Of a stretch of DNA of 64,000 nt, positions 39,028-53,701 are shown one piece after another (the stretch's first letter is position 1; the number at the start of each line of letters is the position of its first letter). Source of the stretch: Pelagibacterium sp. 26DY04 (lineage in GTDB: Bacteria; Pseudomonadota; Alphaproteobacteria; Rhizobiales; Devosiaceae); contig NZ_CP101731.1 in the NCBI RefSeq assembly GCF_031202305.1, positions 1,488,001 to 1,552,000 of the forward strand. The letters run 5' to 3'. Under the pieces are notes generated by a model that was not told the origin of the DNA, made no database searches, and saw only the letters and a list, made by a program, of their open reading frames with translations. The translations under genes and the position numbers were made by a program.

Positions 39028-39117
39028 GGAGAGGTGGCCGAGTGGTCGAAGGCGCGCCCCTGCTAAGGGCGTAGGCGGGTAACTGTCTCGAGGGTTCGAA
39101 TCCCTTCCTCTCCGCCA
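39028..39117 (+). tRNA. tRNA-Ser (anticodon GCT)
   Basis: A 90-base class II tRNA. The acceptor stem GGAGAGG pairs with CCTCTCC, followed by discriminator G and an encoded CCA. The anticodon loop CTGCTAA reads GCT (codons AGC/AGU). A long variable arm and the T-loop GGTTCGAATCCC are present. No copy of its 3' end that would mark an integrated element was seen elsewhere in the window. Confidence 0.97.
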
Positions 39118-39241: not shown

Positions 39242-40231
39242 TTGAAATCTGCGACAGCGAACGACGTTGCGCGATTGGCGGGTGTTTCCCGGTCTGCCGT
39301 GTCCCGCACATTTTCCGGCAACGGGTTCGTCTCAAGCGAAAAGCGCGAAAAAATCCTCAAGGCGGCCCAGCAACTCGACTATCGCCCCAACGCTATCGCC
39401 AGCAGCCTTGCCAGCCGGCAGAGCAATATGGTCGCGGTGATCATCAATAAACTCCCCGATGGTCGCTCGCCCTATTTCTACAATGCACTGATGAATGCGA
39501 TTCAGGAGCAAGGCCTCTTGCCGCTCATGGTGATGGTCGAGCCGGGCGAGGATGGCATTCGTACGCTCAACAGGGCGGCGGCTTATCCTGTGCGGGGCAT
39601 GGTGGTGATGGGTGACAGCGTACATCCCGCTGCAACCGGTAGTATTGTCTCCATGACGCGCCCAATCATTCTCAACGGTCAATGGACAGGTGACGACGAA
39701 GTCGACGCTGTCGTGATCGATCAGCGTCAGGGAATATCCGACATGGTTGCCGATCTCGCCGCCACCGGCCACCGCACCGTTGCTTTCATGGGGGGGCGTT
39801 CCACCGCCCTCATCGCCCGTGATCGGCGGAGCGCGCTGATCGATGCCATGGTGGCGCACGGATTGACGCTGGTTGCCGAGGGCAACGGCGATTTCAAATA
39901 TGACCAGGCCCATGAAGAAGCCATAAGGATGTTCTCGGCCGGGAAATTGCCCGATGCGCTATTCTGCGCCAACGACATCATGGCTTTCGCGGCCATGGAT
40001 GCGCTGCGTTACAAACTCGGGCGCAACGTGCCCGACGACATCAGTGTTATCGGCTATGATGACAACATCTCGGCGCGCTGGGGCGCCTATCAACTCTCCA
40101 CGATCCGCCAAAGCTCCGACGATGTGATCGGTCAGATCCTCTCGCTGTTGACCGAACCACGCCAGCAGCCCGGTCAATTCCGGGTGCGGACCGAATACAT
40201 ACGTCGCACGACCGTAGCATTGCGGCGGTAA
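39242..40231 (+). CDS. LacI family transcriptional regulator
   Basis: A 329-residue repressor with an N-terminal LacI helix-turn-helix (TANDVARLAGVSRSAVSRTF, about 5-24), a hinge helix (NAIASSLASRQ) and a sugar-binding-type effector domain. The start codon is TTG at 39242, chosen because GGGAGGG lies seven bases upstream and no in-frame ATG or GTG fits better. It precedes, in the same direction, the ABC importer and hydrolase genes up to 53701. The 211 bases between it and the binding-protein gene contain LacI-like palindromes with a central CG. I infer that it represses the locus until a mannose-containing inducer is present. Confidence 0.92.
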   Translation: MKSATANDVARLAGVSRSAVSRTFSGNGFVSSEKREKILKAAQQLDYRPNAIASSLASRQSNMVAVIINKLPDGRSPYFYNALMNAIQEQGLLPLMVMVEPGEDGIRTLNRAAAYPVRGMVVMGDSVHPAATGSIVSMTRPIILNGQWTGDDEVDAVVIDQRQGISDMVADLAATGHRTVAFMGGRSTALIARDRRSALIDAMVAHGLTLVAEGNGDFKYDQAHEEAIRMFSAGKLPDALFCANDIMAFAAMDALRYKLGRNVPDDISVIGYDDNISARWGAYQLSTIRQSSDDVIGQILSLLTEPRQQPGQFRVRTEYIRRTTVALRR

Positions 40232-40275
40232 AACACGGCAAGACCTCCATAAATGGCCTCCACCAGCTCGCGTCA

Positions 40276-40381
40276 CACGCGTGAGCAAGTGGACGCGCGT
40301 GCAGTTTTCAAAACGCTATCATACGAGCGTAATGAAGTTGTCATGGGGGAGATACAAAACGCACATATGCAAGCGCGTGCA
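40276..40381. promoter_or_regulatory. Candidate LacI operators and promoter of the importer/hydrolase operon
   Basis: Two near-palindromes have the central CG typical of LacI operators: TGGACGCGCGTGCA (40290-40303) and TGCAAGCGCGTGCA (40368-40381), each with one mismatched pair. A shorter CACGCGTG core lies at 40276-40283. A possible promoter TTGTCA (40338-40343) with ACATAT 19 bases later would place the last site at the transcription start. The sites are visible; their binding is inference. Confidence 0.5.
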
Positions 40382-40442
40382 CAATGATTGGCGCGCCGAT
40401 CATCGTTTCCGCCCTCCATGGCAATAAAAGTGGGATGCCATC

Positions 40443-42410
40443 ATGAACCTTCTCAACAAGCGCCTGAACGCTCTGGCGGGTACCGTGGCTTTGGTCATGG
40501 CCGCTTCGCCCGCGCTCGCGCAAACCTGCAACGCGTATTCGGAAGCCCCGCAGCTCGCAGAAGCCGTGGCAGCGGGCGAACTGCCGCCGGTCGAAGAGCG
40601 TTTGCCGCTCGAGCCGCTCGTCCTCACCCCGGCCGAACAGATCGGCGTTTATGGCGGCGATCTCATCGACACCAACGGCGGCAGCCGCCTGGCGGAGTTC
40701 CGCCACTATGGCTATGAGCCGCTGGTGCGCTGGTCGGTGGACGGTTCGGAAGTAGTCCCCAACGTTGCCAAGGGCTGGGACGTCTCCGAGGATGCGACCA
40801 CATACACGTTCCACCTGCGTGAGGGCATGAAGTGGTCCGATGGGGAAGACTTCACGGCTGACGACATCGTCTTCTGGTGGGAGCGGGTCGAAACCAACAC
40901 CGACATCAACGAATCTCCGCGTGGGATGTTCGTCGTCGATGGCGAACTCGCGACCGTCACTGCCATCGACGACTATACGGTCGAATTCAAATGGTCCAAC
41001 CCCAACGGTCTGTTCCTCAACGACCTGGCGACTTCCTATGGCCAGCGCGTCGTTCAGTTCGCCGAGCACTACGTTTCCCAGTTCGATCGCGATCTCAACC
41101 CCGAGGGCGTGGCCCAGATGATGGAAGAGGCCGGCGCGACCGACTACACCACCTGGTGGCGCGATACCGTGGGTACGTACGGCATGCAGTCCGAATACAA
41201 CAATCCGGACCGTCCCCATATCCATGCGTGGCTCCCCACCGAGCCGTTCCTGGGCAAGGAGCGCTTCACCTTCGAGCGCAATCCGTATTTCTTCAAGGTC
41301 GATACCGAGTGCAACCAGCTCCCCTACATCGACACGCGCACCTGGGTACTGGTTCAGGATTCAGAGGTTCAGCTTGCCATGTCGCTCTCGGGCCAGGTCG
41401 ACATCAGCCAGGTCAATATCTCCAATCCTTCAAACCGGGCGATCTTCTTCGAGAACCAGGAGCAGGGTGATTATCGCCTGATCTCGGCGGAAAGCGCCGA
41501 CATGAACACCGCATACTTCATGTTTGCGCTGAACCATCCCGATCCGTTCAAGGCTTCGGTCTATCAGAACAAGGATTTCCGCATCGGCCTGTCGCTGGCC
41601 ATCAATCGGCCGGAGATTATCGACGTCGTCTATCTCGGCCAGGGACGTCCTTATCAGGTCGCTCCCCGCCCGAACTCGCCTTTTTACGACGAGCAGTTGG
41701 CAACGCAGTACACCGAGTACGACGTCGCACTTGCGAACGAACATCTCGACGAGGTGCTGCCGGAAAAGAACGCCGAGGGCATGCGCCTCGATGAGAATGG
41801 AGAGCCTTTCCAGATCGTGATTTCAGTCAATGAAGGCTTCCGTTCCGATTGGGTCGATATGGCTCTCCTGGTGGAAAGCTATTGGGAAGCGGTGGGTATC
41901 GACGTGGTGGTCGATGTCGTTGCCGACGAGGTCTATGAACAGCGTAGCACCGCTCCGAACCGCGACCTTAATCTCTGGATCGCCGAAAACGGTTCGGGCA
42001 GCCTCCCGCTGATGGCCACGCACGTTTTCCTCGGTGGCCCCGGCATGGCAGGCAATTGGGATGCCTGGGAGCTCTGGTACAACCAGGAGCGCGGGCTGGT
42101 TAACCGCGGATCCGACGTTGCCGGCGATGTCGAGCCCATCGAGCCTCCGACCGAGGTGATCGAGCTTCTCGATGCTGCCAATTCCATCGCCACGACGGCG
42201 GGCGAAGAACAGGCCGAGCGCATGCACGAATATCTCGACATGGTCGCCGAGTTCTTCCCCACCGTCGGTATAGCGCTGCCCGAAGGCAACTACCGCGCCG
42301 TCAAGAATAATCTGCGCAATCTGCCCGAACCGCTGATCGAGGGGTGGCTCTATCCGGGCATCGCTCCGGCCAATTTCTCGACCTTCTATTTCGAGCCCGA
42401 CCAGCAGTAG
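40443..42410 (+). CDS. ABC importer substrate-binding protein, family 5 (DppA/OppA/AgpA-like)
   Basis: A 655-residue periplasmic binding protein with a Sec signal peptide (cleavage near SPALAQT, about residue 26) and the SBP family-5 pattern: VPNVAKGWDVSEDATTYTF, the LREGMKWSDGEDFTADDI signature (about 120-140), and NPYFFKVD. It is longer than peptide-binding DppA (about 535), and in length nearer to AgpA of Sinorhizobium, a family-5 protein that binds alpha-galactosides. Family 5 thus includes oligosaccharide binders. With a GH38 mannosidase in the same operon, a mannose-containing ligand is more likely here than a peptide. It is first in the operon after the LacI sites. Confidence 0.9.
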   Translation: MNLLNKRLNALAGTVALVMAASPALAQTCNAYSEAPQLAEAVAAGELPPVEERLPLEPLVLTPAEQIGVYGGDLIDTNGGSRLAEFRHYGYEPLVRWSVDGSEVVPNVAKGWDVSEDATTYTFHLREGMKWSDGEDFTADDIVFWWERVETNTDINESPRGMFVVDGELATVTAIDDYTVEFKWSNPNGLFLNDLATSYGQRVVQFAEHYVSQFDRDLNPEGVAQMMEEAGATDYTTWWRDTVGTYGMQSEYNNPDRPHIHAWLPTEPFLGKERFTFERNPYFFKVDTECNQLPYIDTRTWVLVQDSEVQLAMSLSGQVDISQVNISNPSNRAIFFENQEQGDYRLISAESADMNTAYFMFALNHPDPFKASVYQNKDFRIGLSLAINRPEIIDVVYLGQGRPYQVAPRPNSPFYDEQLATQYTEYDVALANEHLDEVLPEKNAEGMRLDENGEPFQIVISVNEGFRSDWVDMALLVESYWEAVGIDVVVDVVADEVYEQRSTAPNRDLNLWIAENGSGSLPLMATHVFLGGPGMAGNWDAWELWYNQERGLVNRGSDVAGDVEPIEPPTEVIELLDAANSIATTAGEEQAERMHEYLDMVAEFFPTVGIALPEGNYRAVKNNLRNLPEPLIEGWLYPGIAPANFSTFYFEPDQQ

Positions 42411-42482
42411 GCACCAGCCTCCAATCCAAACGGGAGCGGGCCTTGATTTCGGGGCCCGCTCGGCACTGCAAGAACCGGTATC

Positions 42483-43490
42483 ATGGCTGAATTCTTCCTC
42501 CGGCGGCTGGTGCTGATGATCTTTACGGTCATCGCGATCAGCATCGTCTCATACGCGATTATCGCCCTGCCGCCGGGGGACTATGTGGACAAGGTGGTTG
42601 CCGACGCGCGCAAGGTCGGTGACGTGATGACCGCCAGCGAGATCGACGCGCTGCGCACGCAATTGGGTCTCGATCGCAGCCTGCCCGAGCAATACCTCTC
42701 CTGGATATGGGGGATCGTGACCCGGGGCGATTTCGGGCGCTCCTTCTTCTGGGAAGTGCCGGTCTCCGAAATCATCTGGCAGCGCTTGGGTATGACGACG
42801 CTGCTTTCGGTGTTGACCTTGGTGTTTATCTGGGTCGTCGCCATTCCGATCGGCATTTATTCGGCCGTCAAGAAGTACTCGCTGGGCGATTATGTGTTCA
42901 CGACCGCGGGCTTCATCGGCCTCGCCATTCCCAATTTTCTCCTGGCACTGATCCTGCTCTACATCTCATTTCGATATATGGGGCAAAGTGTTGGCGGCCT
43001 TTTTTCACCCGAATATGTCAATGCGCCCTGGTCGCTGGGCAAGGTGCTCGACCTCATCAGCCACCTTTGGATACCCATGGTGGTTCTGGGCACCGCCGGT
43101 ACAGCGAGCGTGATCCGGACAATTCGCGCTAATCTGCTCGACGAGTTGCACAAGCCCTACGTGCTCACCGCCCGCGCCAAGGGTTTGGAGGAGCGTCGCC
43201 TGACGCTCAAATACCCCGTGCGCTATTCGCTCAACCCCTTCGTGAGCGGCCTCAACGATATCTTCGTCACCATCATTTCGGGCGAAACCATCGTCGCCGT
43301 GGTCCTGGGCCTGCAAACGACAGGCCCGCTGCTGCTCGACGCGTTGCGCGGTCAGGACATGTACCTGGCGGCCACCCTCATCATGTTTCTAAGCTTTCTC
43401 GCTGTTCTGGGCACGCTGTTCTCCGACGTGCTGCTTATGGCGCTTGATCCTCGCATTCGTCGCCAGGCTCGAGAGGGAGAAGTGCTATGA
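42483..43490 (+). CDS. ABC importer permease, DppB-like
   Basis: A 335-residue inner-membrane permease of the binding-protein-dependent type. It opens with the DppB-like FFLRRLVLMIFTVIAISIVSY and contains six hydrophobic helices plus the cytoplasmic EAA-type loop LHKPYVLTARAKGLEERR that contacts the ATPase. DppB proteins typically have a GDFGRSF segment after the first helix, and that is present. Its stop overlaps the next permease start as ATGA, so the two are translationally coupled. Confidence 0.92.
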   Translation: MAEFFLRRLVLMIFTVIAISIVSYAIIALPPGDYVDKVVADARKVGDVMTASEIDALRTQLGLDRSLPEQYLSWIWGIVTRGDFGRSFFWEVPVSEIIWQRLGMTTLLSVLTLVFIWVVAIPIGIYSAVKKYSLGDYVFTTAGFIGLAIPNFLLALILLYISFRYMGQSVGGLFSPEYVNAPWSLGKVLDLISHLWIPMVVLGTAGTASVIRTIRANLLDELHKPYVLTARAKGLEERRLTLKYPVRYSLNPFVSGLNDIFVTIISGETIVAVVLGLQTTGPLLLDALRGQDMYLAATLIMFLSFLAVLGTLFSDVLLMALDPRIRRQAREGEVL

Positions 43491-44659
43491 CCGCGTCACA
43501 CCCTCAGATGCCCTCTGCGCCGCAAGCCGTGCGGACGATACCCGAAACACGGACCGCAACGGCCGATGCGATCGATCGCGCCAGCTACGGCGCCCTCGTC
43601 TGGCGTCGGTTCAAACGCCACAAGCTGGGCGTGTTCGGCGCTGCCCTGACGATACTGATCTATCTGGTGGCACTGTTCTGCGAATTCATCGCCACGGGTG
43701 ATCCGGAGCAGTTCTCGCCCACAGCGCTCTATACGCCGCCACAGATGGTCCGCCTTTTCGTCGAGAATCCCGAGGGCGGCATGCGGTTCCAGCCCCATGT
43801 TCTGGGCTATTCCTCTACGGTCGATTACAACACCGGCCAGCGCATCTACGAAGCGGATCCCGAAAAGATCATAGAGATCGGCTTCTTCGTACAGGGCGAT
43901 CCTTACCGGCTCTGGGGCCTTTTCGAGATGGATCGGCACCTGCTGGGCGCAGTCGATCCCAACCAAACCGTGTACTTTTTCGGTTCCGACCGGTTGGGGC
44001 GCGATGTTTTCAGCCGCACTGTCTATGCAACGCGTGTTTCGATGACCATCGGGCTGATCGGGGTCGGTCTGAGCCTGTTCCTCGGCATCATCATCGGCGG
44101 TGCTTCGGGCTATTTCGGCGGCTGGGCCGATGTGGGCATTCAGCGCGTCATCGAGTTTCTACAGTCGCTTCCGGCCATTCCGCTCTGGATCGGCCTGGCC
44201 GCGGCGATTCCGCCCACGGTGCCCCCGATGCAGACCTATTTCATGATCACCGTGATCCTTTCGGTGCTCGGCTGGACAGGTCTGGCTCGCATCGTGCGCG
44301 GTAAATTCATGCAGCTCAAGAACGAGGAGTTCGTGATCGCCGCCCGTGTCGATGGCTGCAAGCCCTCGCGCATCATCATGCGGCACATGGTGCCCAATTT
44401 TCTAAGTCACATCATCGCTGCGGTGACCCTCGCCATACCGGGGATGATCATTGCCGAAACCGCGCTGAGTTTTTTGGGCATTGGCCTGCGCCAGCCGGTG
44501 GTGAGTTGGGGCGTGCTGCTGCAGGAAGCACAGAACCTGCGTTCGATCGCCGCTGCGCCATGGTTGTTCGCGCCGGGCGGAGCGGTAGTCGTCGCCGTGC
44601 TGGCCCTCAATTTCTTCGGCGACGGCCTGCGCGATGCAGGAGATCCCCATGCAAACTGA
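43487..44659 (+). CDS. ABC importer permease, DppC-like with enlarged periplasmic loop
   Basis: A 390-residue permease, against about 300 for ordinary DppC. It has the DppC-type N-terminus with a soluble leader and first helix (about 48-68). An enlarged periplasmic loop of about 95 residues follows, before the family motif FGSDRLGRDVFSR. The remaining helices and the EAA-type loop (NEEFVIAARVDGCKPSRII) are normal. The large insert is seen in saccharide-type members of this transporter class and may help dock the large binding protein. It overlaps the ATPase gene by 11 bases. Confidence 0.9.
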   Translation: MTASHPQMPSAPQAVRTIPETRTATADAIDRASYGALVWRRFKRHKLGVFGAALTILIYLVALFCEFIATGDPEQFSPTALYTPPQMVRLFVENPEGGMRFQPHVLGYSSTVDYNTGQRIYEADPEKIIEIGFFVQGDPYRLWGLFEMDRHLLGAVDPNQTVYFFGSDRLGRDVFSRTVYATRVSMTIGLIGVGLSLFLGIIIGGASGYFGGWADVGIQRVIEFLQSLPAIPLWIGLAAAIPPTVPPMQTYFMITVILSVLGWTGLARIVRGKFMQLKNEEFVIAARVDGCKPSRIIMRHMVPNFLSHIIAAVTLAIPGMIIAETALSFLGIGLRQPVVSWGVLLQEAQNLRSIAAAPWLFAPGGAVVVAVLALNFFGDGLRDAGDPHAN

Positions 44660-46727
44660 CCTGCTCATGTCCTTAAAGGACGTTTCAATTTCTTTCGTTC
44701 AGGACGGCCGGCAGACCCAGGCGCTCAACAAGGTGAGCTTCGATATTCCGCGCGGCAAGACGGTTTGCCTCGTTGGGGAGTCCGGGTGTGGGAAATCGCT
44801 GACGGCGCGCTCCATCCTGCGCATCCTTGACAACAACGCCCGCATCGATGGGGGCGCGATCACATTCGAAAGCGCCAACGGCGTCGTCGATCTCGCCTCT
44901 CTTCCCGATAAGGGCCAGCAATTGCGGGCCATTCGCGGCAACGAGATCACCATGATTTTCCAGGAGCCGATGTCGGCCATGTCGGTCTACCACACGATCG
45001 GCGATCAGATCATCGAGGGCATCTGCCAGCACTCGTCGATGAGCAAGGGCCAGGCGCGGGCGCGTGCCCTCGAAGTGCTGGAGGCTGTCGGCATGCCTGA
45101 CGCCGAGGCTCGGCTCGATGCCTATACGTTTGAACTCTCCGGCGGACAACGCCAGCGTGCCATGATCGCCATGGCGCTCGCCAACAATCCGCAATTGCTG
45201 ATCGCCGACGAGCCGACCACCGCGCTCGACGTCACGACCCAGGCCGTAACTCTCGAATTGATGCGCGACCTGCAGGACCGGTTCGGCATGTCCATTTTGT
45301 TCATTACCCATGATCTGGGTGTTGTTGCCGACATCGCCGACGAAGTCGTCGTCATGTATTTGGGCGAGGTGGTCGAACGCGGCCCGGTCGAGCAGATATT
45401 CAATCGCCCACGGCATCCTTACACGCGCGCACTGCTCAAGGCCGCCCCGCATTATGATCAGCGTCACGGCGAGCGGCTGCCGGTGATTCCGGGCACGGTG
45501 CCGGCCCTTTGGCAGCGCCCCGCAGGATGCGTATTCTCCACCCGCTGCGCCTATTTCGAGCCCGGCAGTTGCGATGCGATCCGCCCGCCCATGATGCCAG
45601 GGGAAACGCAATCGCGGTGCGTCTTCACCGCTGACGAACTCGATGCGCGCAAGCCGTTGCCGGTGGCGGTGGAGGCTGAGATCGTTCCTTTCGCGCGCCC
45701 GCCGGTCGACGGCACGGTCTTCGAAGCCGAAGCGATCACCAAGCATTTCGTCAAGAAATCGGGGCTGTTCAAGCGCAAGACCAAAACCATCGAGGCTGTT
45801 TCGGACGTTTCGCTCACCTTGCGCGGTGGCGAAACGCTGGGGCTGGTCGGGGAGTCCGGTTGCGGCAAGTCCACGCTGGGCTTCACCCTGGCTGGCTTGC
45901 ACGAGCCGACGGGCGGTTCCATCCGCCTCAAGCGGGATGGCAGCCTGGTTGACGTGACCGACATTTCCGAAGCCGAGCGGCGGTCGGTCTGGCGAGATCT
46001 GCGGATCGTGTTCCAGGATCCGTTCGCATCCCTCAACCCCCGCATGAGCGTTTTCGACATCGTTGCCGAACCGCTCAGGGCAGGTCCGCAACCGGTGACG
46101 GATCGCCATGAACTGGCCCGGCGCGTCAACGAAACCTTGGCGCGGGTAGGGCTCGATCCCGCATTGGGAGATCGCTACCCGCATGCCTTTTCCGGTGGCC
46201 AGCGCCAGCGGATCGGCATTGCGCGAGCCCTCGTGCCCAACCCCAGGATCATCATTGCCGACGAGCCGGTTTCAGCGCTTGACGTCTCGGTCCAGGCCCA
46301 GATCCTCAACCTGTTCCGCGATCTGCAGCGCGAGTTTTCGCTCACTTATCTTTTCGTTTCCCACGATCTCAACGTCGTCTCCAACATCGCCGATCGGGTG
46401 GCGGTGATGTATGCCGGCCGCATCGTGGAACTGGCCGATACGACCGATATCTACAATCGGCCGCAACATCCCTACACGGCGGCTCTGCTCAGCGCGGTGC
46501 TGACTCCCGAATACGGGCACAAGCGTTCCGGCCGGCAGCGTCTACGCGGGCATCCGCCCAATCCGGCCGACCTGCCACCCGGTTGCGCCTTCGCCGCCCG
46601 TTGTCCTTTCGCCACCGACCTTTGCCGCTCGGTTGCGCCGGAGTTGACCACCGATCCGCAGGGCCGGCTGGCAGCCTGTCACCGCAAGGACGAGTTGAAC
46701 CTCGAAGGCCTGCAGGAAACCGCCTGA
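44649..46727 (+). CDS. ABC importer ATPase, fused DppD-DppF type
   Basis: A 692-residue cytosolic protein carrying both ATPase domains of an oligopeptide-type importer in one chain. Domain 1 has Walker A GESGCGKS and signature [12 protein letters not shown]; domain 2 repeats GESGCGKS with [12 protein letters not shown]. Each domain ends in the oligopeptide/dipeptide C-terminal extension with paired Cys (CVFSTRC; CAFAARC), which in related importers can hold an iron-sulfur cluster. I start at the ATG at 44649 because AGGAG lies eight bases upstream; a start at 44634 is possible. The stop shares one base with the next gene (TGATG). Confidence 0.93.
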
Positions 46728-48106
46728 TGCGTATCAGCCAGACTGGACTATCGCTGCTCACCGGCAGCGAGGACATCGCGCATGTCCGCATCACGCGCTC
46801 CGACCAGGAGGCGAGCGCCTATTTCTATGTGCCGCTCGACTTGGGCGAAGCGGTGGAGGCGATCACTGTCGACCTGCAGTATCCAAAGGGCCCCGGCTGC
46901 ATCATTGATCTGGGCGCATTCGACCCTCGCGTAACCGAATATCCCACCACGGCAGGGTTTCGCGGCTGGAGCGGGGGCGCACGATCGCAATTTTCCATTG
47001 CAGCGGATGCGGCAACTCCCGGCTATGTGGCTGGTCCGCTTCAAGCCGGACGCTGGCTGATCGTCCTGGGGCTCTACAAAATCCCCTCCGAGACCGTCGA
47101 GGTCACCCTTGCGGCACGCGCGCTGAGGACCGGCCCGCTCGCCAGGCCTCAACCGGCGCCCACCGCGTCTACCCCGCGCGGCATCGGCTGGTATCGCGGC
47201 GATTGCCATAGCCACACCTTCCACAGCGACGCCAAGGGAAGTCCCGAACTGCTGCACCGGACGGCGCGGAAAGCGGGTCTCGATTTCCTCTTCATCACCG
47301 ACCACAACACCACAACGGCCTGGACGGCTTATTTCGAGACCGCCTCCAGCCCCGATCTTGTCTTCATTCCCGGCGTGGAGATCACGACGGCGGACGGGCA
47401 CGCCAATGTCCTGGGCGCCGACGAGTGGATCGATTTCCGGCTTGAAGGCGATGCCGATATCGCGGCCCTGGAGGACGCGGCTCGGGCGCGCGGCGCGCTG
47501 CTGACGGTCAACCACGACAAGCCGCCGATCCCCTGGCGCTATCGCTGGCCGGCAGTCGACTGCATGGAGGTTTGGCACCAGGAATGGGCCGACGGCAACA
47601 GCGGTCTCGGTGCCCGCTATGATGCTCTTTTGCGTCAGGGCCTGAAGATCACGGCGATCGGAGGCAGTGACTATCATCAAGCCGCCGAAGTTCGCCTGGG
47701 CGGCCCCCGCAGTCTTGGCTCGCCCACGACCGTCATTCATGCCGAACGGCTCGACCGCCAGGGCGTGATCGCCGCCCTGCGGTCCGGACTGGCCTACATC
47801 ACCGAGACGCCCGACGGCCCCCATCTGGAAATTTCGTCCAATGGTACGCCGATGGGAGGAACCTGCGCCCAATCGGACGGCGCCGACCTCCGGATCGTCG
47901 CGCGCGGGGCAGGGGGCGACCTCCTGCAGCTCATCGGCGATCACGGCGTTTTCGTACAGCTGCCGATCGATGCCGACGATTGGGACTACCAGATACCTCT
48001 CCCCTCGGGTCTGCGCTTCGTCCGTGCCCAGATCATGTCCGGCGCTCCAGATCCTCGCTGCCGCGCACTCTCCAACCCCCTCTATTTTCAAGCAGCTTCA
48101 CGATGA
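46727..48106 (+). CDS. CehA/McbA-like PHP-domain metallohydrolase (copy 1)
   Basis: A 459-residue cytosolic protein with no signal peptide. An N-terminal beta-rich domain (about 1-145) precedes a PHP metallohydrolase domain with GDCHSHTFHSD (H161, H163), FITDHNTTTAW, the metal-binding VEITTADGH and GGSDYHQ. CehA/McbA enzymes hydrolyse esters such as carbaryl; most PHP relatives are phosphoesterases. As the next genes encode an importer and a mannosidase, I infer hydrolysis of a phosphodiester or ester in an imported glycoside. It is translationally coupled on both sides (TGATG, ATGA). Copy 2 has the same two-domain design. Confidence 0.85.
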   Translation: MRISQTGLSLLTGSEDIAHVRITRSDQEASAYFYVPLDLGEAVEAITVDLQYPKGPGCIIDLGAFDPRVTEYPTTAGFRGWSGGARSQFSIAADAATPGYVAGPLQAGRWLIVLGLYKIPSETVEVTLAARALRTGPLARPQPAPTASTPRGIGWYRGDCHSHTFHSDAKGSPELLHRTARKAGLDFLFITDHNTTTAWTAYFETASSPDLVFIPGVEITTADGHANVLGADEWIDFRLEGDADIAALEDAARARGALLTVNHDKPPIPWRYRWPAVDCMEVWHQEWADGNSGLGARYDALLRQGLKITAIGGSDYHQAAEVRLGGPRSLGSPTTVIHAERLDRQGVIAALRSGLAYITETPDGPHLEISSNGTPMGGTCAQSDGADLRIVARGAGGDLLQLIGDHGVFVQLPIDADDWDYQIPLPSGLRFVRAQIMSGAPDPRCRALSNPLYFQAASR

Positions 48107-49470
48107 GCATCGTCTTCGAAGGGCTCCTCACGCTCGATACTATGTCGTCCCATGTGCCCCACACGTTTACCCTGCCGCCGGGTGTCGAAACGCTCCGGGC
48201 AAGGTTCACCCACAGCCCGACCCATCCGGGCGTCGGCGATATTCCCCATCAGATATCGGTGTCCCTCTATGGACCGGCCGGGCCGCGTGGAACACGCCAC
48301 AACAATGTGGACCAGAGTGTCTGGATTTCGACCCGCCAAGCCTCTCCCGGCATTGTTCCAGGCGCGCCCGAACCGGGAACATGGCAGATCGAGATCGATG
48401 TGCATCGCATTCTTCCCCCGGGCCATGTCAGCTATCGGCTTGAGATCGACTGGGCGCAAACGGAGACCTTCCAGCCAGTCGATCCCCTCGTTCCGCTCAC
48501 TGGCCAACGTCGGCGCGGACCCGGCTGGTATCGCGGTGACCTTCACGGCCATACCATCCACTCCGACGGCCAGCTCAGCGTCGCTGAATATCTCCAATAC
48601 GCGGTCGAACGCGGATATGATTTCGTCGCTCTAACCGACCACAACACGGTTACAGGGCTCCCCGAGCTCGACAGGCGTGCCGGCGAGGCGATCACCATCA
48701 TCGGCGGCACCGAACTCACCACCTATAACGGTCACGCACTCGTTTTGGGCACGCGCGAACTCGTCGATTGGCGCGTGCGTGATGGCGAAACCATGAGCGG
48801 GCGTGCCGAAGCTCTCACCGATGAGGGAAAACTCTTCGTCATCGCTCATCCAAAAGCCGAAGGTCATCCGTTCTGCACCGGCTGCCGCTGGGCGTTTTCC
48901 GACCTGATGCCGGGACCGGCCCGGCATATCGAGGTATGGAACCGTTTTTGGTCCGAGCGGACCCACAATGAAGAGAGCGTCTACCTCTTCTACCGCTGGC
49001 TCAACGCCGGTTATCGGATGGTGGCAACCGCCGGCACCGACACCCATCGCCGCGCCGCCACTGGCGGGCGCATTGCGGCCAATGTGGTTTATGCGCTCGA
49101 CAATACCCAGGACGAAATTCTCGCCGGAATCCGCGCCGGCCGCAGCTTTATTTCCAGCGGTCCCGAGCTCAAGCTTTCGGCGCAGGGCGCCGATGGCGGC
49201 AAGGCGGGAATGGGGCAGGCCATGGCCGCGGGGCGGCTAACGCTGCGCTGCGATTGGGCCGGCGCCGGAGAGGACGGCCTTGTCGCCGGACTGATCCGGC
49301 GCGGACGGCGCATCGAGAGTTGGACTTGCGGAGAAGCCGGGGCGGGTACTTTCGAGGTCGAGGCCGAAGATGGCGATTGGTTCGTATGCGAGCTGCGCGA
49401 CCGGACAGCTGGGCTCCACGCCATCACCAATCCCATACATGTCGGCACGGTCCCCGATATCTGGCGCTAG
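48103..49470 (+). CDS. CehA/McbA-like PHP-domain metallohydrolase (copy 2)
   Basis: A 455-residue protein with the same plan as copy 1: a beta-rich N-terminal domain (about 1-135), then a PHP domain with GDLHGHTIHSDG (H148, H150), LTDHNTVTG, GTELTTYNGH and ATAGTDTHR. The phrase RGxGWYRGD before the first metal motif occurs in both copies, so they arose by duplication or are close subfamilies. No signal peptide. It overlaps copy 1 by four bases. Substrate-loop residues differ from copy 1, which hints at sequential steps or different linkages. Confidence 0.85.
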   Translation: MSIVFEGLLTLDTMSSHVPHTFTLPPGVETLRARFTHSPTHPGVGDIPHQISVSLYGPAGPRGTRHNNVDQSVWISTRQASPGIVPGAPEPGTWQIEIDVHRILPPGHVSYRLEIDWAQTETFQPVDPLVPLTGQRRRGPGWYRGDLHGHTIHSDGQLSVAEYLQYAVERGYDFVALTDHNTVTGLPELDRRAGEAITIIGGTELTTYNGHALVLGTRELVDWRVRDGETMSGRAEALTDEGKLFVIAHPKAEGHPFCTGCRWAFSDLMPGPARHIEVWNRFWSERTHNEESVYLFYRWLNAGYRMVATAGTDTHRRAATGGRIAANVVYALDNTQDEILAGIRAGRSFISSGPELKLSAQGADGGKAGMGQAMAAGRLTLRCDWAGAGEDGLVAGLIRRGRRIESWTCGEAGAGTFEVEAEDGDWFVCELRDRTAGLHAITNPIHVGTVPDIWR

Positions 49471-49480
49471 GAGGGTCACA

Positions 49481-52400
49481 ATGCTGCGTATCAACAAGAT
49501 CGACCACACACTGGCGACGCTTCGTAGCCGGATTTTCACCCCGCTCGATACGCCGGTTGCGCTAAAGTTCCTCGCCGGCACCGCCGATGATCGCCCCCGC
49601 GCTCTCAGTGGCGACACTGAGGATTGGCGCCAGGTCACGGGCGATCTCGCCTGGGGCGAGCCCGACGCCTATTTCTGGTTTGCCGGCAGCGTCACCATTC
49701 CAGAGGAGGCACAAGGCAGGCGGGTGTTCCTCCACGTGGACGCCCAGTTCGGCTCGATGATGGGCCGTTCGGATCCGCAATGCCTCGTCAGGGTCGACGG
49801 CAAGCTGGCCCAGGGCGTCGACGGCAACCATCGCGAACTGCTGCTCACCGAACACGCGACCACCGGCACCCGCTACGAGATCATGATCGAGGCTGGAACC
49901 ATCGAAGATCGCCGTCAGGTGGGGTTCGGCTGTCGGCTGATGGTGCACGACGCGCTGTCCGAGCAGGTCTACTACGACCTGCGCGCGCCCATGGATGTTG
50001 CGCGCCTCCTGGCCGATGACGATCCCCGAAAGCCGTTTCTGATAAACACCATCGACGCCGCTTTGGCCGTGATCGATTTCCGGCCCGGCCCCGAGCGCTT
50101 CGCCCGATCGCTCGAGGCGGCACGGGACATGGCGCGCACGATCTACGAGGCCGCCGATTTCGAGGACAAGCCGGTCATTACCGTCACCGGCCATACCCAC
50201 ATCGACGTTGCCTGGCTGTGGCGGATGCGCGAAACGCGTCAGAAGATGGCGCGCTCCATGTCCACGGCGCTGGCCCTGATGGAGCAGTATCCGGACTACC
50301 GCTTCATGTACAATCAGGGAGTGCTGCTCGATCACCTGAAGGCTGATTACCCCGAACTGTTCGAGCGTCTTTCCGGCGCCGTGGCGAGAGGACAGTTCGA
50401 GATTGAGGGCGCGTTGTGGCTCGAGCCTGACGCGAATATCACCAGCGGCGAGTCCTTCGTGCGCCACATCATGCACGGCGTAAACTATCACGAGCAGACC
50501 TTCGGGGTGCGCCCGCGCATCATGTGGCTGCCCGACACCTTCGGCTATTCCGCCGCATTGCCGCAAATCATGCGCCTCTCCGGCCTCGATGTGTTCGTCA
50601 CTCATAAGATGAGCTGGAACGACACCAACAAGATGCCCAGCGATACCTTCTTCTGGCAGGGCATCGACGGGTCCAGCGTCGCGGCATATTTCCTCACCGC
50701 CCAGCCCTATGACGCCAAATCCATCAACACGACCTACGGCCCCGATCTCAAGCCGTCCCACGTGATGGGCACATGGCGGCGTTATGGACAAAAGGACGCC
50801 ATTTCCGAGCTGTTCCTCGTCTATGGCCATGGCGATGGCGGAGGTGGCCCAACCCGCGAGATGCTTGAAAACATACGCCGCATGGAGCGCGGCATTCCGG
50901 GGCTGCCGACGGTGCGGCATGGGCATATGCGCCCATTCTTCGAGCGCCTTCTGGCGCGCATGGAAAAAGAACCGGAGCGCTTCCCCCATTGGGTGGGTGA
51001 ACTCTATCTCGAATTCCACCGCGGCACGCTCACATCCATCGCCAAGAACAAGCGCAGCAACCGGCTTGCCGAAACCGCGATGCGCGAGATCGAGGCGCTG
51101 GCAACGCTCGCCACCGTCGCCAAGGGAAATCCCTATCCGCAGCAGCGGCTGCACGCACTCTGGCGTGTCGTGCTGCTCAACCAGTTCCACGACATTCTGC
51201 CCGGCTCTTCCATCGGCCCGGTCTACGACGATAGCGACGTGGACTATGCCTGGTTCTTCGACGAGATCGAAAGCCTCAGGACTGAACTCGCCGCCCAGTT
51301 GAGCGGGGAGGGCGCCATGGTGTTCAACGTCCTGCCGCGTCCACGTTCAGGCCTGCTCACCTGGTCCGGCGATCGGTCGGCCACAGCTACCATTGGCGAA
51401 TATAGCGCCGCCAGCCAGACGCTCGTCCGCGCCGACGGATCGTATGAGCAGGCAGTCCCGGTCCGTGACCTGCCGCCCACCGGCGTGGTTCCGGTCTCCC
51501 TGAACCCAGGGGAGGCCGGGCAAGTCAGTGATGAACTCTCCGTTTCTACCGGCCATCTCGAAAACGCCTTTCTCAAGGTACTCTTCGACACGCGCGGTCG
51601 GATCACCTCGATTCTCGACAAACGCTCGGGCCGTGAAGTCGTAAAGCCCGGCCAGCTTGCCAATCGGCTTCAGGCTTTCCGGGATATGCCGCCGCAATAC
51701 GACGCCTGGGATATCGATCCGGGGTTCGAGGACCAGAGTTGGGATATCGACGAGTTGGTCTCCGCCGAGGTGGTCGAGACCGGACCCTATCGGGCCGCCG
51801 TGCGGTTTGAGTGGGCTTATGAAGCCTCGCGCATCGTGCAGGTGGTGGCGCTGGAAGCCGGCGCGGACCAGATCGACATCGACGGGTTCATCGATTGGCG
51901 CGAGCACCACACTCTGGTCAAAGCGGCGTTCCCCCTCGATGTGGTGGCTGACGCTACGACCGCGGAAATCCAGTTCGGCCATGTGCGCCGCCCGACACAC
52001 CGCAATACGTCCTGGGATCAGGCGCGGTTTGAAACACTGATGCATCGTTGGGTGGATATTGCCGAACCCGGCTTCGGTGTCGCGCTCCTCAACGATTGCA
52101 AATATGGCTATGACGCCAAGGGCACGACGCTGCGTCTGACCCTGCTTCGCTCACCCACCTTTCCGTGGGCCGAGGCCGACCAGGGCGAGCACCGCTTCCG
52201 CTATGCCATCCTCGTTCATCGCGGCACCCTCGCCGGAGAGGGGGTTCCGGCTAAAGCCGAAGAGTTCAACCTTCCGCTTCGGCTGATCGGCACTCCGGGC
52301 GAAATAGCCGTCTCCGGCGAAAGTCTTCTGGCGCTGGAGGGTACCGGCTGCACCGTCGAAAGCATCAAGATCGCCGAGACAGGTACGGACGTCATAGCGA

Positions 52401-52582
52401 GAGTCTGGGAAACGCACGGCGCCTACACGCACGCCCGGCTCACCTTGCCTCGGGGTTTCATGGCCGCTGTCGAAACCGACCTTCTCGAGCGCAATCCTGT
52501 CCCCTTGCCGATGACCAACGGCATCCTCGAACTCGACCTCTCTCCCTTCCAGATCCGCACGATCCGGCTCTCCCGCATCTGA
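49481..52582 (+). CDS. Alpha-mannosidase, glycoside hydrolase family 38
   Basis: A 1033-residue cytosolic enzyme that removes alpha-linked mannose. An N-terminal beta-sandwich region (about 1-225) precedes the GH38 catalytic domain. This contains the zinc-binding GHTHIDVAWLW (H238, H240, D242), the nucleophile D352 in WLPDTFGYSAALPQ, and further His in YGHGDGGGGP. The family middle domain and C-terminal beta domains follow. Related bacterial GH38 enzymes are often cytoplasmic and act on small alpha-mannosides. It starts at the ATG at 49481 after GGAGG, 10 bases behind PHP copy 2. No signal peptide, so the substrate must be imported first. Confidence 0.93.
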   Translation: MLRINKIDHTLATLRSRIFTPLDTPVALKFLAGTADDRPRALSGDTEDWRQVTGDLAWGEPDAYFWFAGSVTIPEEAQGRRVFLHVDAQFGSMMGRSDPQCLVRVDGKLAQGVDGNHRELLLTEHATTGTRYEIMIEAGTIEDRRQVGFGCRLMVHDALSEQVYYDLRAPMDVARLLADDDPRKPFLINTIDAALAVIDFRPGPERFARSLEAARDMARTIYEAADFEDKPVITVTGHTHIDVAWLWRMRETRQKMARSMSTALALMEQYPDYRFMYNQGVLLDHLKADYPELFERLSGAVARGQFEIEGALWLEPDANITSGESFVRHIMHGVNYHEQTFGVRPRIMWLPDTFGYSAALPQIMRLSGLDVFVTHKMSWNDTNKMPSDTFFWQGIDGSSVAAYFLTAQPYDAKSINTTYGPDLKPSHVMGTWRRYGQKDAISELFLVYGHGDGGGGPTREMLENIRRMERGIPGLPTVRHGHMRPFFERLLARMEKEPERFPHWVGELYLEFHRGTLTSIAKNKRSNRLAETAMREIEALATLATVAKGNPYPQQRLHALWRVVLLNQFHDILPGSSIGPVYDDSDVDYAWFFDEIESLRTELAAQLSGEGAMVFNVLPRPRSGLLTWSGDRSATATIGEYSAASQTLVRADGSYEQAVPVRDLPPTGVVPVSLNPGEAGQVSDELSVSTGHLENAFLKVLFDTRGRITSILDKRSGREVVKPGQLANRLQAFRDMPPQYDAWDIDPGFEDQSWDIDELVSAEVVETGPYRAAVRFEWAYEASRIVQVVALEAGADQIDIDGFIDWREHHTLVKAAFPLDVVADATTAEIQFGHVRRPTHRNTSWDQARFETLMHRWVDIAEPGFGVALLNDCKYGYDAKGTTLRLTLLRSPTFPWAEADQGEHRFRYAILVHRGTLAGEGVPAKAEEFNLPLRLIGTPGEIAVSGESLLALEGTGCTVESIKIAETGTDVIARVWETHGAYTHARLTLPRGFMAAVETDLLERNPVPLPMTNGILELDLSPFQIRTIRLSRI

Positions 52583-52600
52583 ACCGCCCAAGAGACTTCC

Positions 52601-53701
52601 ATGACCGAACCACTCCAGTCCTCAGCACGCCCCGATACATCCAACGCCGGTGGGGTCTGGCTCAAGGGCGATTGGCATATGCACTCCCATCACAGCCTCG
52701 ATTCCTCGAACAACCCGCCGGCAAAGATCATCGCCTTCGCTGAACGGATGGGGTTCGACTATCTCGCCATCACCGATCATGACGTGCATGTCCTGGGCAA
52801 CGTCGCGGCCAATACATGGGCCGATCCGGGCTTCAAATCCGATCGTCTGATGCTGTTTTATGGCGCCGAACTCACCGCGGCGCGCGGGCATATCAACATC
52901 TTCTCGCCCGAACCTTATGACCACCAGCGCCTGTTCGATGCCCGCGACGCGCGCGACTGGGATCTGCGGGAGGTAAAGCGCGCGTTGGGGGTTCACATGT
53001 CGGCCAACCATCCCAGCACCAAGAACCATTACGGCTTTTCCTTCGACCTCGCGGATTCGATCGAGGTTTGGAATACCAGCGTCTGGCCCAAGAACGTTCC
53101 GGCTCTGCGGATCTGGGACGACATGCTGAAATCGGGCCGCATGCTGGGCGCGAGAGGCGGCAGCGATTCCCATCACGGCACGCCCGTGGGCGAAGAAGTG
53201 GAGACGCCGCTTACCATCGAAGCGAGCTACAACTATGTGGGCACGCCGACCACCTGGATATATGCGCGCGAGCGCAGCAAATCGGCCATCCTCGAAGCGT
53301 TGGTAGCCGGGCGCGCGTCAATCAGCGCCAATCCCTTCAACCCTCGTGTCGAACTTCACGCTTGTTCCGAGGATGGCCGGCTGATGATGGGTGACAACGC
53401 CCCTTCGGACGGCCGGCCGGTCGAGTTTGAAATCGCCCTCGCCGGCGAGCCGATGGCGGGAGTGCAATACCGGGCCCATGTCATCAAGAACCGTGAGCCG
53501 CTATGCACCGTCCTCACCGACCCGCAAACCGGCCTTGCGCGTTTCATCGATATCCCCGAGGTCGGCATGCGGAGCTATTACCGCGTGGAAATCTACGGCC
53601 CGCAGACGCCCTATCCGCAAGTCCCGTTCTCCATGGCGCAAAGCGGCGATACGGTCGCGCTCTCCAACCCCATCTATTTCAATTACGACCCGCAGTTCTG
53701 A
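52601..53701 (+). CDS. CehA/McbA-like PHP-domain metallohydrolase (copy 3, short form)
   Basis: A 366-residue PHP protein that lacks the long N-terminal beta domain of copies 1 and 2. The metal motif comes early (GDWHMHSHHSLD; D24, H26, H28), followed by AITDHDVHV, GAELTAARGH, HPSTKNHYG and GGSDSHHG. A C-terminal beta-rich domain (about 250-366) replaces the missing N-terminal one. It is 18 bases after the mannosidase and the last gene of the operon. It ends three bases before the convergent iorB-like gene, with no clear terminator between. I infer a related but distinct ester or phosphodiester substrate. Confidence 0.85.
   Translation: MTEPLQSSARPDTSNAGGVWLKGDWHMHSHHSLDSSNNPPAKIIAFAERMGFDYLAITDHDVHVLGNVAANTWADPGFKSDRLMLFYGAELTAARGHINIFSPEPYDHQRLFDARDARDWDLREVKRALGVHMSANHPSTKNHYGFSFDLADSIEVWNTSVWPKNVPALRIWDDMLKSGRMLGARGGSDSHHGTPVGEEVETPLTIEASYNYVGTPTTWIYARERSKSAILEALVAGRASISANPFNPRVELHACSEDGRLMMGDNAPSDGRPVEFEIALAGEPMAGVQYRAHVIKNREPLCTVLTDPQTGLARFIDIPEVGMRSYYRVEIYGPQTPYPQVPFSMAQSGDTVALSNPIYFNYDPQF

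What the first reader, a model, noticed from the sequence alone, without database searches (positions are those of the whole stretch)
39242..53701. A LacI-controlled importer with three PHP hydrolases and a GH38 mannosidase: candidate undescribed catabolic pathway
Seen: LacI, family-5 binding protein, two permeases, a fused ATPase, PHP copy 1, PHP copy 2, GH38, PHP copy 3, all in one direction, mostly with 1-11 base overlaps or gaps below 20 bases. Known: family 5 includes saccharide binders (AgpA), GH38 releases alpha-mannose, and PHP proteins are often phosphoesterases. Inferred: none of the four hydrolases has a signal peptide, so a mannose-containing compound with several ester or phosphodiester bonds is imported whole and taken apart inside, for example a fragment of yeast phosphomannan or a mannosylated phospholipid head group. 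I know of no characterised pathway with this exact set.
Basis: partly seen in the sequence, partly recalled or inferred. Interest (0 to 1): 0.8.

Follow-up and report, generated by a model that had tools for sequence, protein, structure and literature searches.

The report
Importer operon for mannosylated phospho-glycans
A bacterium carries one switchable gene set that appears to import a charged, mannose-bearing sugar compound and break it down inside the cell with three related metal-dependent hydrolases and a mannosidase; neighbouring genes in some other microbes hint that the compound could be the sugar-phosphate head of plant membrane lipids, but no substrate has been shown.

Summary
In detail: LacI, family-5 binding protein (SBP5), two permeases, fused ATPase, CehA/McbA PHP1 and PHP2, Ams1-type GH38 and PHP3 lie on one strand in 39242-53701. 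All three PHPs keep the metal motifs. A LacI-type operator motif occurs twice in the 3.89 Mb genome, both just upstream of SBP5. The exact set was not seen elsewhere; it is a mosaic. LacI-SBP5-B-C-ATPase-PHP1-PHP2 recurs, without GH38, in two Rhodobacterales MAGs. GH38 with an adjacent CehA/McbA gene recurs in 10 of 14 close-GH38 loci examined, 11 of 14 with another SBP5 importer branch, often with GH88 and sometimes GH28 or KduI/KduD. In 297 genomes of the order, 10 pairs lie within 5 kb (0.13 expected), three of them the window's own. The binding protein groups with pectin-binding SPH1118 but keeps only 4 of 16 mapped ligand residues. Best reading: import and intracellular hydrolysis of an anionic mannosylated glycan, probably phosphorylated. 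Boldest: the Man-GlcA-inositol-phosphate head of plant GIPC sphingolipids, suggested by PI-PLC, GDPD, GH92+iol and HGSNAT/GH89/GH115 beside some related PHPs. Against it: 65 actinobacterial PHP loci show no GDPD or PI-PLC.

The parts
39028..39117 (+). tRNA-Ser(GCT) immediately upstream of the operon (possible insertion boundary; not tested)
   Evidence: ARAGORN
39242..40231 (+). LacI-family regulator
   Evidence: Pfam LacI 5e-15 and Peripla_BP_3 6e-21; 41-44% identical to LacI of the L055/L056 operons
40290..40303 (+). LacI-type operator candidate 1 (TGGACGCGCGTGCA)
   Evidence: one of two genome matches to TGSAMGCGYGTGCA
40368..40381 (+). LacI-type operator candidate 2 (TGCAAGCGCGTGCA)
   Evidence: same motif upstream of SBP5 and of PhyH in L055/L056
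40443..42410 (+). family-5 solute-binding protein (SBP5), saccharide-type branch
   Evidence: Pfam SBP_bac_5 1e-59; PDB relatives 5ipw, SPH1118
42483..43490 (+). permease B
   Evidence: Pfam BPD_transp_1 and BPD_transp_1_N
43487..44659 (+). permease C
   Evidence: Pfam BPD_transp_1 and OppC_N
44634..46727 (+). fused double ATPase
   Evidence: Pfam ABC_tran two stretches, oligo_HPY two stretches
46727..48106 (+). PHP1, CehA/McbA metallohydrolase with N-terminal domain (459 aa)
   Evidence: NF038032 231 bits; conserved metal motifs
48103..49470 (+). PHP2, CehA/McbA metallohydrolase with N-terminal domain (455 aa)
   Evidence: NF038032 214 bits; weak match to the phosphoribosyl 1,2-cyclic phosphate hydrolase model, 1.7e-6 and far below its cut-off
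49481..52582 (+). GH38 alpha-mannosidase, Ams1/cytosolic type (1033 aa)
   Evidence: Pfam PF01074 1e-80, PF07748, PF09261, PF17677; alignment to Ams1 structures
52601..53701 (+). PHP3, CehA/McbA metallohydrolase without the N-terminal domain (366 aa)
   Evidence: NF038032 137 bits; 62-69% identical to PHPs in related genomes' GH38 loci

Best explanation
This is a LacI-controlled catabolic operon. An ABC importer with a saccharide-type family-5 binding protein brings an anionic, alpha-mannosylated glycan into the cell (inferred from families). Inside, the GH38 removes alpha-mannose and the three CehA/McbA PHP enzymes hydrolyse ester bonds on the remainder, most likely phosphate mono- or diesters (inferred). 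LacI is expected to leave its two operators in front of the SBP5 gene when an inducer is present (inferred from site position and conservation). The operon is a mosaic: an SBP5-importer + PHP1-PHP2 core joined to a GH38-PHP3 pair of the kind found in uronate-glycan loci of the window's family and of rhizobia (shown by comparison).
For: Gene content. Operator motif only twice in the genome, both in the SBP5 promoter, and in the orthologous promoters of L055/L056. SBP5 groups with pectin-binding SPH1118 and keeps Arg57, Ser298, Arg438 and Trp594 (PMC9314435 abstract and section 8). GH38 aligns with Ams1 from residue 229 to 1030. PHP-GH38 pairs 10 against 0.13 expected. Core without GH38 in L055/L056. 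GH38 + PHP beside an SBP5 importer with GH88 and GH28 in L040/L134 and L148-L150, and with GH88, KduI and KduD in L133. CUT1 operon with PHP and GH38 in Martelella mediterranea. For phosphate: PHP2-like genes with GDPD in Roseinatronobacter and Deinococcus aetherius, a PHP1-like gene beside PI-PLC in Hymenobacter, and characterised PHP phosphodiesterases (abstract and passages of PMC5460133).
Against: The namesake CehA is described as a carbaryl and oxamyl (carbamate) hydrolase (search listings), so the bond need not be a phosphoester. None of 65 actinobacterial PHP1 relatives had a GDPD or PI-PLC neighbour by my reference set and one had GH38. Of 19 further CehA/McbA regions fetched from the order (of 73 hits), GDPD was near one and PI-PLC near none. 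Of 11 SPH1118 residues that hydrogen-bond its trisaccharide only 3 are identical in the window protein; Arg466 is Asp and Arg496 is Ala. No uronate enzyme lies in this operon.
Confidence: 0.5

Rival explanations
1. A special case of the best explanation: the substrate is an inositol-phosphate glycan, such as the Man-GlcA-inositol-phosphate head of plant GIPC sphingolipids or a fungal mannosyl-inositol-phosphate. GH38 removes mannose, PHPs remove phosphate (or open a cyclic phosphate), and the genome's own inositol genes consume the inositol.
For: Neighbourhoods of some related PHPs match pieces of that molecule: Sphingomonas parapaucimobilis from Chinese cabbage, PHP + GH92 + iolG/iolC/iolD, with a PI-PLC gene on another plasmid of the same strain; Novosphingobium humi, PHP3 relative (55%) beside GH115, HGSNAT, GH89, a TonB receptor and nag-like genes; Hymenobacter volaticus, alkaline phosphatase-SusC-SusD-PI-PLC-PHP, then GH28. 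PMC11496612 section 8 (read whole) gives mannosyltransferase-dependent GlcA-inositol-phosphate heads in Arabidopsis and GlcNAc in place of mannose in tomato. The genome holds an IolB-family gene, an iolE-like gene, iolD, iolC and iolG together at 646-666 kb.
Against: The neighbourhoods were looked up one by one and chosen from hit lists, so they are not a controlled enrichment. Of 17 plasmid CehA/McbA neighbourhoods viewed, 7 had a mannose-, glucosamine-, inositol- or phospholipid-type partner, 5 had none of these (two Streptomyces, Haladaptatus caseinilyticus, Croceicoccus, Novosphingobium MBES04) and 5 had only DUF5054, isomerase or xylan-type partners nearby. 65 actinobacterial loci gave no GDPD or PI-PLC. 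Inositol genes are common in the order (recalled). No enzyme for the GlcA-inositol bond lies in the window's operon.
Confidence: 0.25
2. The substrate is a pectin- or glucuronomannan-like acidic oligosaccharide carrying carboxylic esters (acetyl, methyl or acyl). The PHPs are sugar-ester hydrolases and phosphate is not involved.
For: SPH1118 relation; GH28, GH88, KduI and KduD in loci of the nearest GH38 relatives; CehA is a carbamate-ester hydrolase (listings); a PHP3 relative near xylan-type and alpha-glucuronidase genes in Hymenobacter.
Against: The window's operon has no GH28, GH88 or KduI; these lie elsewhere in the genome. PHP2 relatives with GDPD and a PHP1 relative with PI-PLC point to phosphate.
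Confidence: 0.3
3. Peptide or other non-carbohydrate uptake operon with unrelated passenger hydrolases, assembled next to a tRNA gene.
For: Family-5 importers often carry peptides (recalled); tRNA-Ser at the left edge; exact set not seen elsewhere in the genomes searched.
Against: Tight spacing through the operon; the core recurs with 41-73% identity in two Rhodobacterales MAGs; GH38+PHP recurs; the binding protein is nearer to saccharide than to peptide binders.
Confidence: 0.07

Closest known systems
SPH1118 pectin-binding protein of Sphingomonas sp. A1 (PMC9314435)
   Same: Family-5 binding protein alignable over residues 31-638 at E 4.6e-80; Arg57, Ser298, Arg438 and Trp594 kept
   Different: Arg47, Asn53, Glu216, Asn324, Arg466, Asp483, Arg496, Glu505 and Phe592 are replaced and Arg294 is gapped; the abstract and section read mention no PHP or GH38 partner
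Ams1 / cytosolic GH38 alpha-mannosidase
   Same: All four Pfam GH38 modules; E 2e-148 to an Ams1 chain with the HID, PDTFGYSA and GDGGGGPT stretches aligned
   Different: Bacterial and operonic; the first 228 residues do not align; a His stands where the Ams1 chains shown have Lys or Ile before GDGGGG
CehA/McbA family PHP hydrolases
   Same: All three PHPs pass the NCBIfam cut-off
   Different: Three in one import operon, 25-30% identical to one another; substrate unknown
GH38-(PHP)-LacI-SBP5 importer-(HAD-like)-836 aa protein-GH88 loci of Allorhizobium, Ciceribacter, Rhizobium and relatives of the window (compared here)
   Same: GH38 54-66% identical to the window's; a CehA/McbA gene directly downstream in many
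   Different: SBP5 only 28-35% identical, two separate ATPases, uronate enzymes added in most; no PHP1-PHP2 pair
DUF5054-LacI-CUT1-PHP(-GH38) operons, e.g. Martelella mediterranea pMM170
   Same: LacI, sugar importer, CehA/McbA and GH38 in one unit
   Different: CUT1 importer instead of family 5; DUF5054 protein added; one PHP

Membership tests
CehA/McbA family metallohydrolase (NF038032) | score above the curated cut-off of 80 bits | tested here: met
   231, 214 and 137 bits
CehA/McbA family metallohydrolase (NF038032) | PHP metal motifs (HxH, Asp, TDH, Glu, NH/AH, DxH) | tested here: met
   present in all three by alignment; in 25 aligned PHP1-type sequences the first His of HxH is replaced in one, the others are invariant; motif list partly recalled
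CehA/McbA family metallohydrolase (NF038032) | carbamate or ester hydrolase activity | not testable with these tools
   needs assay
GH38 alpha-mannosidase | N-terminal, middle and C-terminal GH38 domains | tested here: met
   PF01074, PF09261, PF07748, PF17677
GH38 alpha-mannosidase | catalytic Asp and metal residues | tested here: met
   GHTHID and WLPDTFGYSA align with Ams1; residue roles recalled; the fourth metal ligand was not settled
GH38 alpha-mannosidase | hydrolysis of alpha-mannosides | not testable with these tools
   needs assay
SPH1118-type uronate-binding SBP5 | overall homology | tested here: met
   E 4.6e-80 over residues 31-638
SPH1118-type uronate-binding SBP5 | ligand-contact residues of the solved complexes | tested here: not met
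   of 16 mapped positions 4 identical, 2 conservative, 9 changed, 1 gapped; 2 of the 4 named pocket arginines kept
LacI-regulated operon | LacI-type regulator and central-CG palindromic operator next to the operon | tested here: met
   the two window sites are imperfect palindromes (12 of 14)
LacI-regulated operon | binding of LacI to the operator and release by a ligand | not tested
   needs gel shift or reporter

The most novel reading that the evidence does not exclude
CehA/McbA PHP enzymes paired with a head-sugar glycosidase (GH38 or GH92 for mannose, GH89 for N-acetylglucosamine) are the phosphate-removing step of bacterial pathways that eat the glycosyl-inositol-phosphate heads of plant GIPC sphingolipids, and the window's operon is an import-whole version of such a pathway.
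Probability: 0.22. Interest if true: 0.88.

Novelty: new variant of a known kind. Interest (0 to 1): 0.58.

Why it matters
I know of no natural substrate for the CehA/McbA family and my searches showed none; the papers listed concern pesticide breakdown. A repeated partnership with a GH38 mannosidase and sugar importers gives the family a testable natural role. If the GIPC reading is right, it would name genes by which plant-associated bacteria use what an abstract in the listing (PMC7980081) calls the predominant lipid of the outer leaflet of the plant plasma membrane.

Tried and rejected
Yeast phosphomannan: considered; nothing in the comparisons favours it. Peptide uptake: rejected as main reading because the full-length PDB matches are 5ipw and SPH1118, while dipeptide-, oligopeptide- and nickel-type proteins match in parts at 9e-20 or weaker. 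5ipw is only named an oligopeptide-binding protein and its ligand was not checked. Exact-set conservation: looked for with SBP5 (2 of 297 genomes at E 1e-150, the own genome and one other) and PHP2 (5 of 297 at 1e-30 including the own genome; one other at 44%, three at 33-34%; 1 of 385, the own genome, at 1e-80 at class level); not found. These searches score only the best few candidates per genome, and each set is a sample of a larger group. PHP2 is not rare in the protein collection: the 40 best rows besides the own one are 51-85% identical, but their contexts cannot be seen with that tool. Actinobacterial PHP1 relatives as a test of the phosphate idea: negative (one or a few reference sequences per family, so divergent partners could be missed, and some loci have short flanks). 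Own-genome search for the 836-aa partner protein: none. DUF5054 as a GH38-like enzyme: only a motif resemblance (THLDIGFTD) seen by eye; Pfam gave DUF5054 alone. PHP1-PHP2 pairing from homologue lists: contig lengths compared for a typed subset, 20 of 120 PHP1 rows and 46 of 120 PHP2 rows, with six equal lengths; equal length is only an indication, and the named case is Martelella endophytica. PMC9246714 (passages only) gave nothing used here.
Full report
What is there. The window is G000:C1:1488001-1552000 of a 3.89 Mb single-contig genome. Genome G259 is of the window's family; its contig of 217062 bases has the length given for a Devosia elaeis protein, and many PHP1 relatives there are named Devosia. 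I infer Devosiaceae or a near relative. Nine genes run in one direction from 39242 to 53701: LacI, SBP5, permease B, permease C, a fused double ATPase, PHP1, PHP2, GH38, PHP3. The listed open frames of PHP1, PHP2 and GH38 start too early; the sensible starts are 46727, 48103 and 49481, which give a 1-base overlap, a 4-base overlap and a 10-base gap. A tRNA-Ser gene ends at 39117, just before LacI.

The hydrolases. All three PHPs pass the CehA/McbA model and keep the PHP metal motifs. PHP1 and PHP2 have about 140-155 residues before the modelled domain, PHP3 only about 20. The three are 25-30% identical to one another, so they are not recent copies; three different specificities are plausible. 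In the 25 aligned PHP1-type sequences the N-terminal FRGWSGGAR stretch is nearly invariant, which suggests it takes part in function. The GH38 has all four family modules and aligns with Ams1 from residue 229 to 1030, the HID, PDTFGYSA and GDGGGGPT stretches included.

The importer. The binding protein matches 5ipw and SPH1118 over nearly its whole length at E about 1e-80. Next comes an alpha-galactoside-binding protein at 8e-27; dipeptide-, oligopeptide- and nickel-type proteins match in parts at 9e-20 or weaker. SPH1118 binds pectin and oligogalacturonides (PMC9314435: abstract and section 8 read). Sixteen residues named there map as follows: Arg57, Ser298, Arg438 and Trp594 identical; Leu295 to Val and Val484 to Ile; nine changed, among them Asn53 to Leu, Glu216 to Gly, Arg466 to Asp and Arg496 to Ala; Arg294 gapped. 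I read this as a related, anion-tolerant saccharide site with a different ligand. The mapping rests on one low-identity pairwise alignment.

Regulation. TGSAMGCGYGTGCA was derived from the two window sites and the sites upstream of SBP5 in L055 and L056. It occurs exactly twice in the whole genome, at window positions 40290 and 40368. Its presence there is circular, its absence elsewhere is not. In L055 and L056 it also occurs, as a perfect palindrome, upstream of a PhyH gene that was not used to derive it, so a PhyH-family oxygenase probably belongs to the same regulon there. Five of 185 loci then held have the motif: L055, L056, L122 (a piece of the window), L035 and L131. The L035 and L131 sites lie about 38 bases before frames that look like binding-protein genes of CUT1 importers, so in other genomes the motif is not confined to this kind of operon.

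Conservation, module one: LacI-SBP5-B-C-fused ATPase-PHP1-PHP2. In the MAG loci L055 (Rhodobacteraceae) and L056 (Albidovulum) the proteins are 41-73% identical and no GH38 was recognised in the 20 kb held. PHP1 and PHP2 relatives also occur on one contig in Martelella endophytica, named in both homologue lists. Among sampled genomes PHP2 is scarce: one other at 44% among 297 of the order, none among 384 others of the class at E 1e-80. In the protein collection 40 rows at 51-85% follow the own one; their contexts are unknown and may include the full set.

Conservation, module two: GH38-PHP. A CehA/McbA gene is next to GH38 in 10 of 14 (L036, L038, L039, L040, L042, L044, L144, L148-L150). It is PHP3-like at 62-69% in four of them, and about 29-33% identical to PHP1 or to its CUT1-linked relative in the five others outside L144. 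Not adjacent: L035 (a PHP3-like gene lies on another contig), L037/L133 (16.7 kb away), L041/L136 and L043 (none near in the stretch held). Eleven of 14 have an SBP5 importer; L041, L042 and L144 do not. GH88 was seen in eight (L132, L133, L134, L043, L044, L148-L150), KduI/KduD in two (L132, L133), and a GH28 gene in six, in two of these on the opposite strand (L035, L037, L040, L148-L150). An 820-880-aa protein family without Pfam match recurs in twelve of the 14, all but L042 and L144.

A third arrangement uses a CUT1 importer: DUF5054-LacI-SBP-MalF-MalG-MalK-PHP, with GH38 added in Martelella mediterranea pMM170 and in G202 (L141; that GH38 is only 38% identical), and without GH38 in the stretches held from Sinorhizobium meliloti pB and Agrobacterium tumefaciens pAtA47a_a, L139, L140 and five of 20 regions fetched (L166, L167, L169-L171).

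Statistics. In 297 genomes of the order there are 73 CehA/McbA hits in 59 genomes and 69 GH38 hits in 43 genomes; 19 genomes have both (hypergeometric P 6.6e-5, not corrected for relatedness). Ten pairs lie within 5 kb, in 8 genomes, against 0.13 expected for random placement. Three pairs are the window's own, six of the eight genomes are of the window's family and one each of two others, and only 8 of 69 GH38 genes take part. The partnership is real but has few independent origins in this sample.

What bond do the PHPs cut? Characterised PHP relatives include phosphatases and phosphodiesterases; abstract and passages of PMC5460133 describe a PHP phosphodiesterase and cite a cyclic-phosphodiester hydrolase from Eggerthella lenta. 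CehA itself is listed for carbamates (search listings only). I viewed 17 plasmid neighbourhoods of CehA/McbA genes, picked from lists of 54, 50, 73 and 20 overlapping records. Seven have a mannose-, glucosamine-, inositol- or phospholipid-type partner: GH38 in Martelella; HGSNAT, GH89, GH115 and nag-like genes in Novosphingobium humi; GDPD in Roseinatronobacter sp. S2 and Deinococcus aetherius pDAETH-2; GH92 and iolG/iolC/iolD in Sphingomonas parapaucimobilis; PI-PLC, an alkaline phosphatase-family gene, SusC/SusD and GH28 in Hymenobacter volaticus; GH76 in Haladaptatus salinisoli. Five have other partners: DUF5054, sugar phosphate isomerase in Deinococcus deserti and D. aetherius pDAETH-1, and xylan-type genes in Hymenobacter, with a GH92 gene 13 kb away. 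Five have none of these: two Streptomyces, Haladaptatus caseinilyticus, and Croceicoccus and Novosphingobium MBES04, where the adjacent genes scanned are TonB receptors.

Less selected samples are mostly negative. In the 67 loci my reference set found no GDPD and no PI-PLC; GH38 in one, and single hits to iolG-like, iolC-like, metallophosphoesterase and IMPase references. In 19 CehA/McbA regions of the order, of 73 hits, GDPD was near one (L167, at the end of a neighbouring importer operon), PI-PLC and GH92 near none, and isomerase genes next to PHP in three (L167, L169, L170).

The GIPC idea. The gmt1 mannosyltransferase mutant of Arabidopsis accumulates GlcA-inositol-phosphate in place of the normal heads, and tomato heads carry GlcNAc in place of mannose (PMC11496612: abstract, passages and section 8). 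The partners above would each take one piece of such a head: GH38 or GH92 mannose; HGSNAT and GH89 glucosamine; GH115 or another uronide enzyme GlcA; PI-PLC the lipid bond; PHP the phosphate; iol genes the inositol. Granulicella tundricola has GH92-LacI-receptor-like gene-PI-PLC without a listed CehA/McbA gene. The window's genome has an IolB-family gene, an iolE-like TIM-barrel gene, iolD, iolC and iolG in one stretch, and KduI/KduD and GH28/GH88-type genes elsewhere. The story is coherent but assembled after the fact from selected neighbourhoods, without a control set and with no enzyme for the GlcA-inositol bond in the operon. I give it 0.22.

Literature. My searches returned no paper with two of GH38, PHP domain and CehA, none naming DUF5054, and no listed title or abstract start describing bacterial use of GIPC heads. 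Lists were capped (15 of 75, 12 of 21, 8 of 24), and the library lacks most subscription papers, so this is weak evidence of absence.

Verdict. The mechanism I favour is LacI-controlled import of an anionic mannosylated glycan followed by intracellular GH38 and PHP hydrolysis. The importer and enzyme families are shown; the substrate and the bond are inferred. The GIPC rival is a special case of this, so the confidences overlap.

Noticed in passing
L132:8774-11281 and relatives (L036, L041, L043, L133, L134, L148-L150): An 820-880-aa protein family without a Pfam match (three members scanned) or NCBIfam match (one scanned) that accompanies GH38 and SBP5 importers; possibly a new lyase or glycosidase family.
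   Followed up: partly
L133:8753-10018, L130:14438-15724: HAD-like protein of about 420 aa with a conserved N-terminal domain (LEHVWVHVD, PGKHA) that travels with SBP5 importers. In the window's own genome it lies beside LacI and a second SBP5 importer (SBP5 59% identical); a metallophosphoesterase and a Y_phosphatase3 gene lie further along on the importer's strand.
   Followed up: partly
L055:280-293 and 478-1455; L056:1359-1372 and 1557-2534: PhyH-family oxygenase gene preceded by a perfect LacI-type operator of the kind found in the SBP5 promoter, so probably a regulon member in these Rhodobacterales.
   Followed up: partly
L131:18879-18892; L035:2830-2843: The same perfect palindrome lies about 38 bases before probable CUT1 binding-protein genes; in L131 that stretch also holds LacI, GDPD and an inositol monophosphatase-family gene.
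   Followed up: no
L144:844-2793 and relatives: DUF5054 proteins sit divergently beside LacI-CUT1-PHP operons and carry a THLDIGFTD motif like the GH38 metal motif; possible distant GH38 relatives.
   Followed up: no
window 39028-39117: tRNA-Ser gene directly upstream of the operon; the operon may be an island inserted there. Empty sites in relatives were not examined.
   Followed up: no
L146:13725-26529: Novosphingobium humi plasmid cluster with a PHP3 relative, GH115, HGSNAT, GH89, TonB receptor and nag-like genes, a striking set for an alpha-glucosaminyl-alpha-glucuronide.
   Followed up: partly
L190: Granulicella tundricola plasmid: GH92, LacI, receptor-like protein and PI-PLC in a row.
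   Followed up: no
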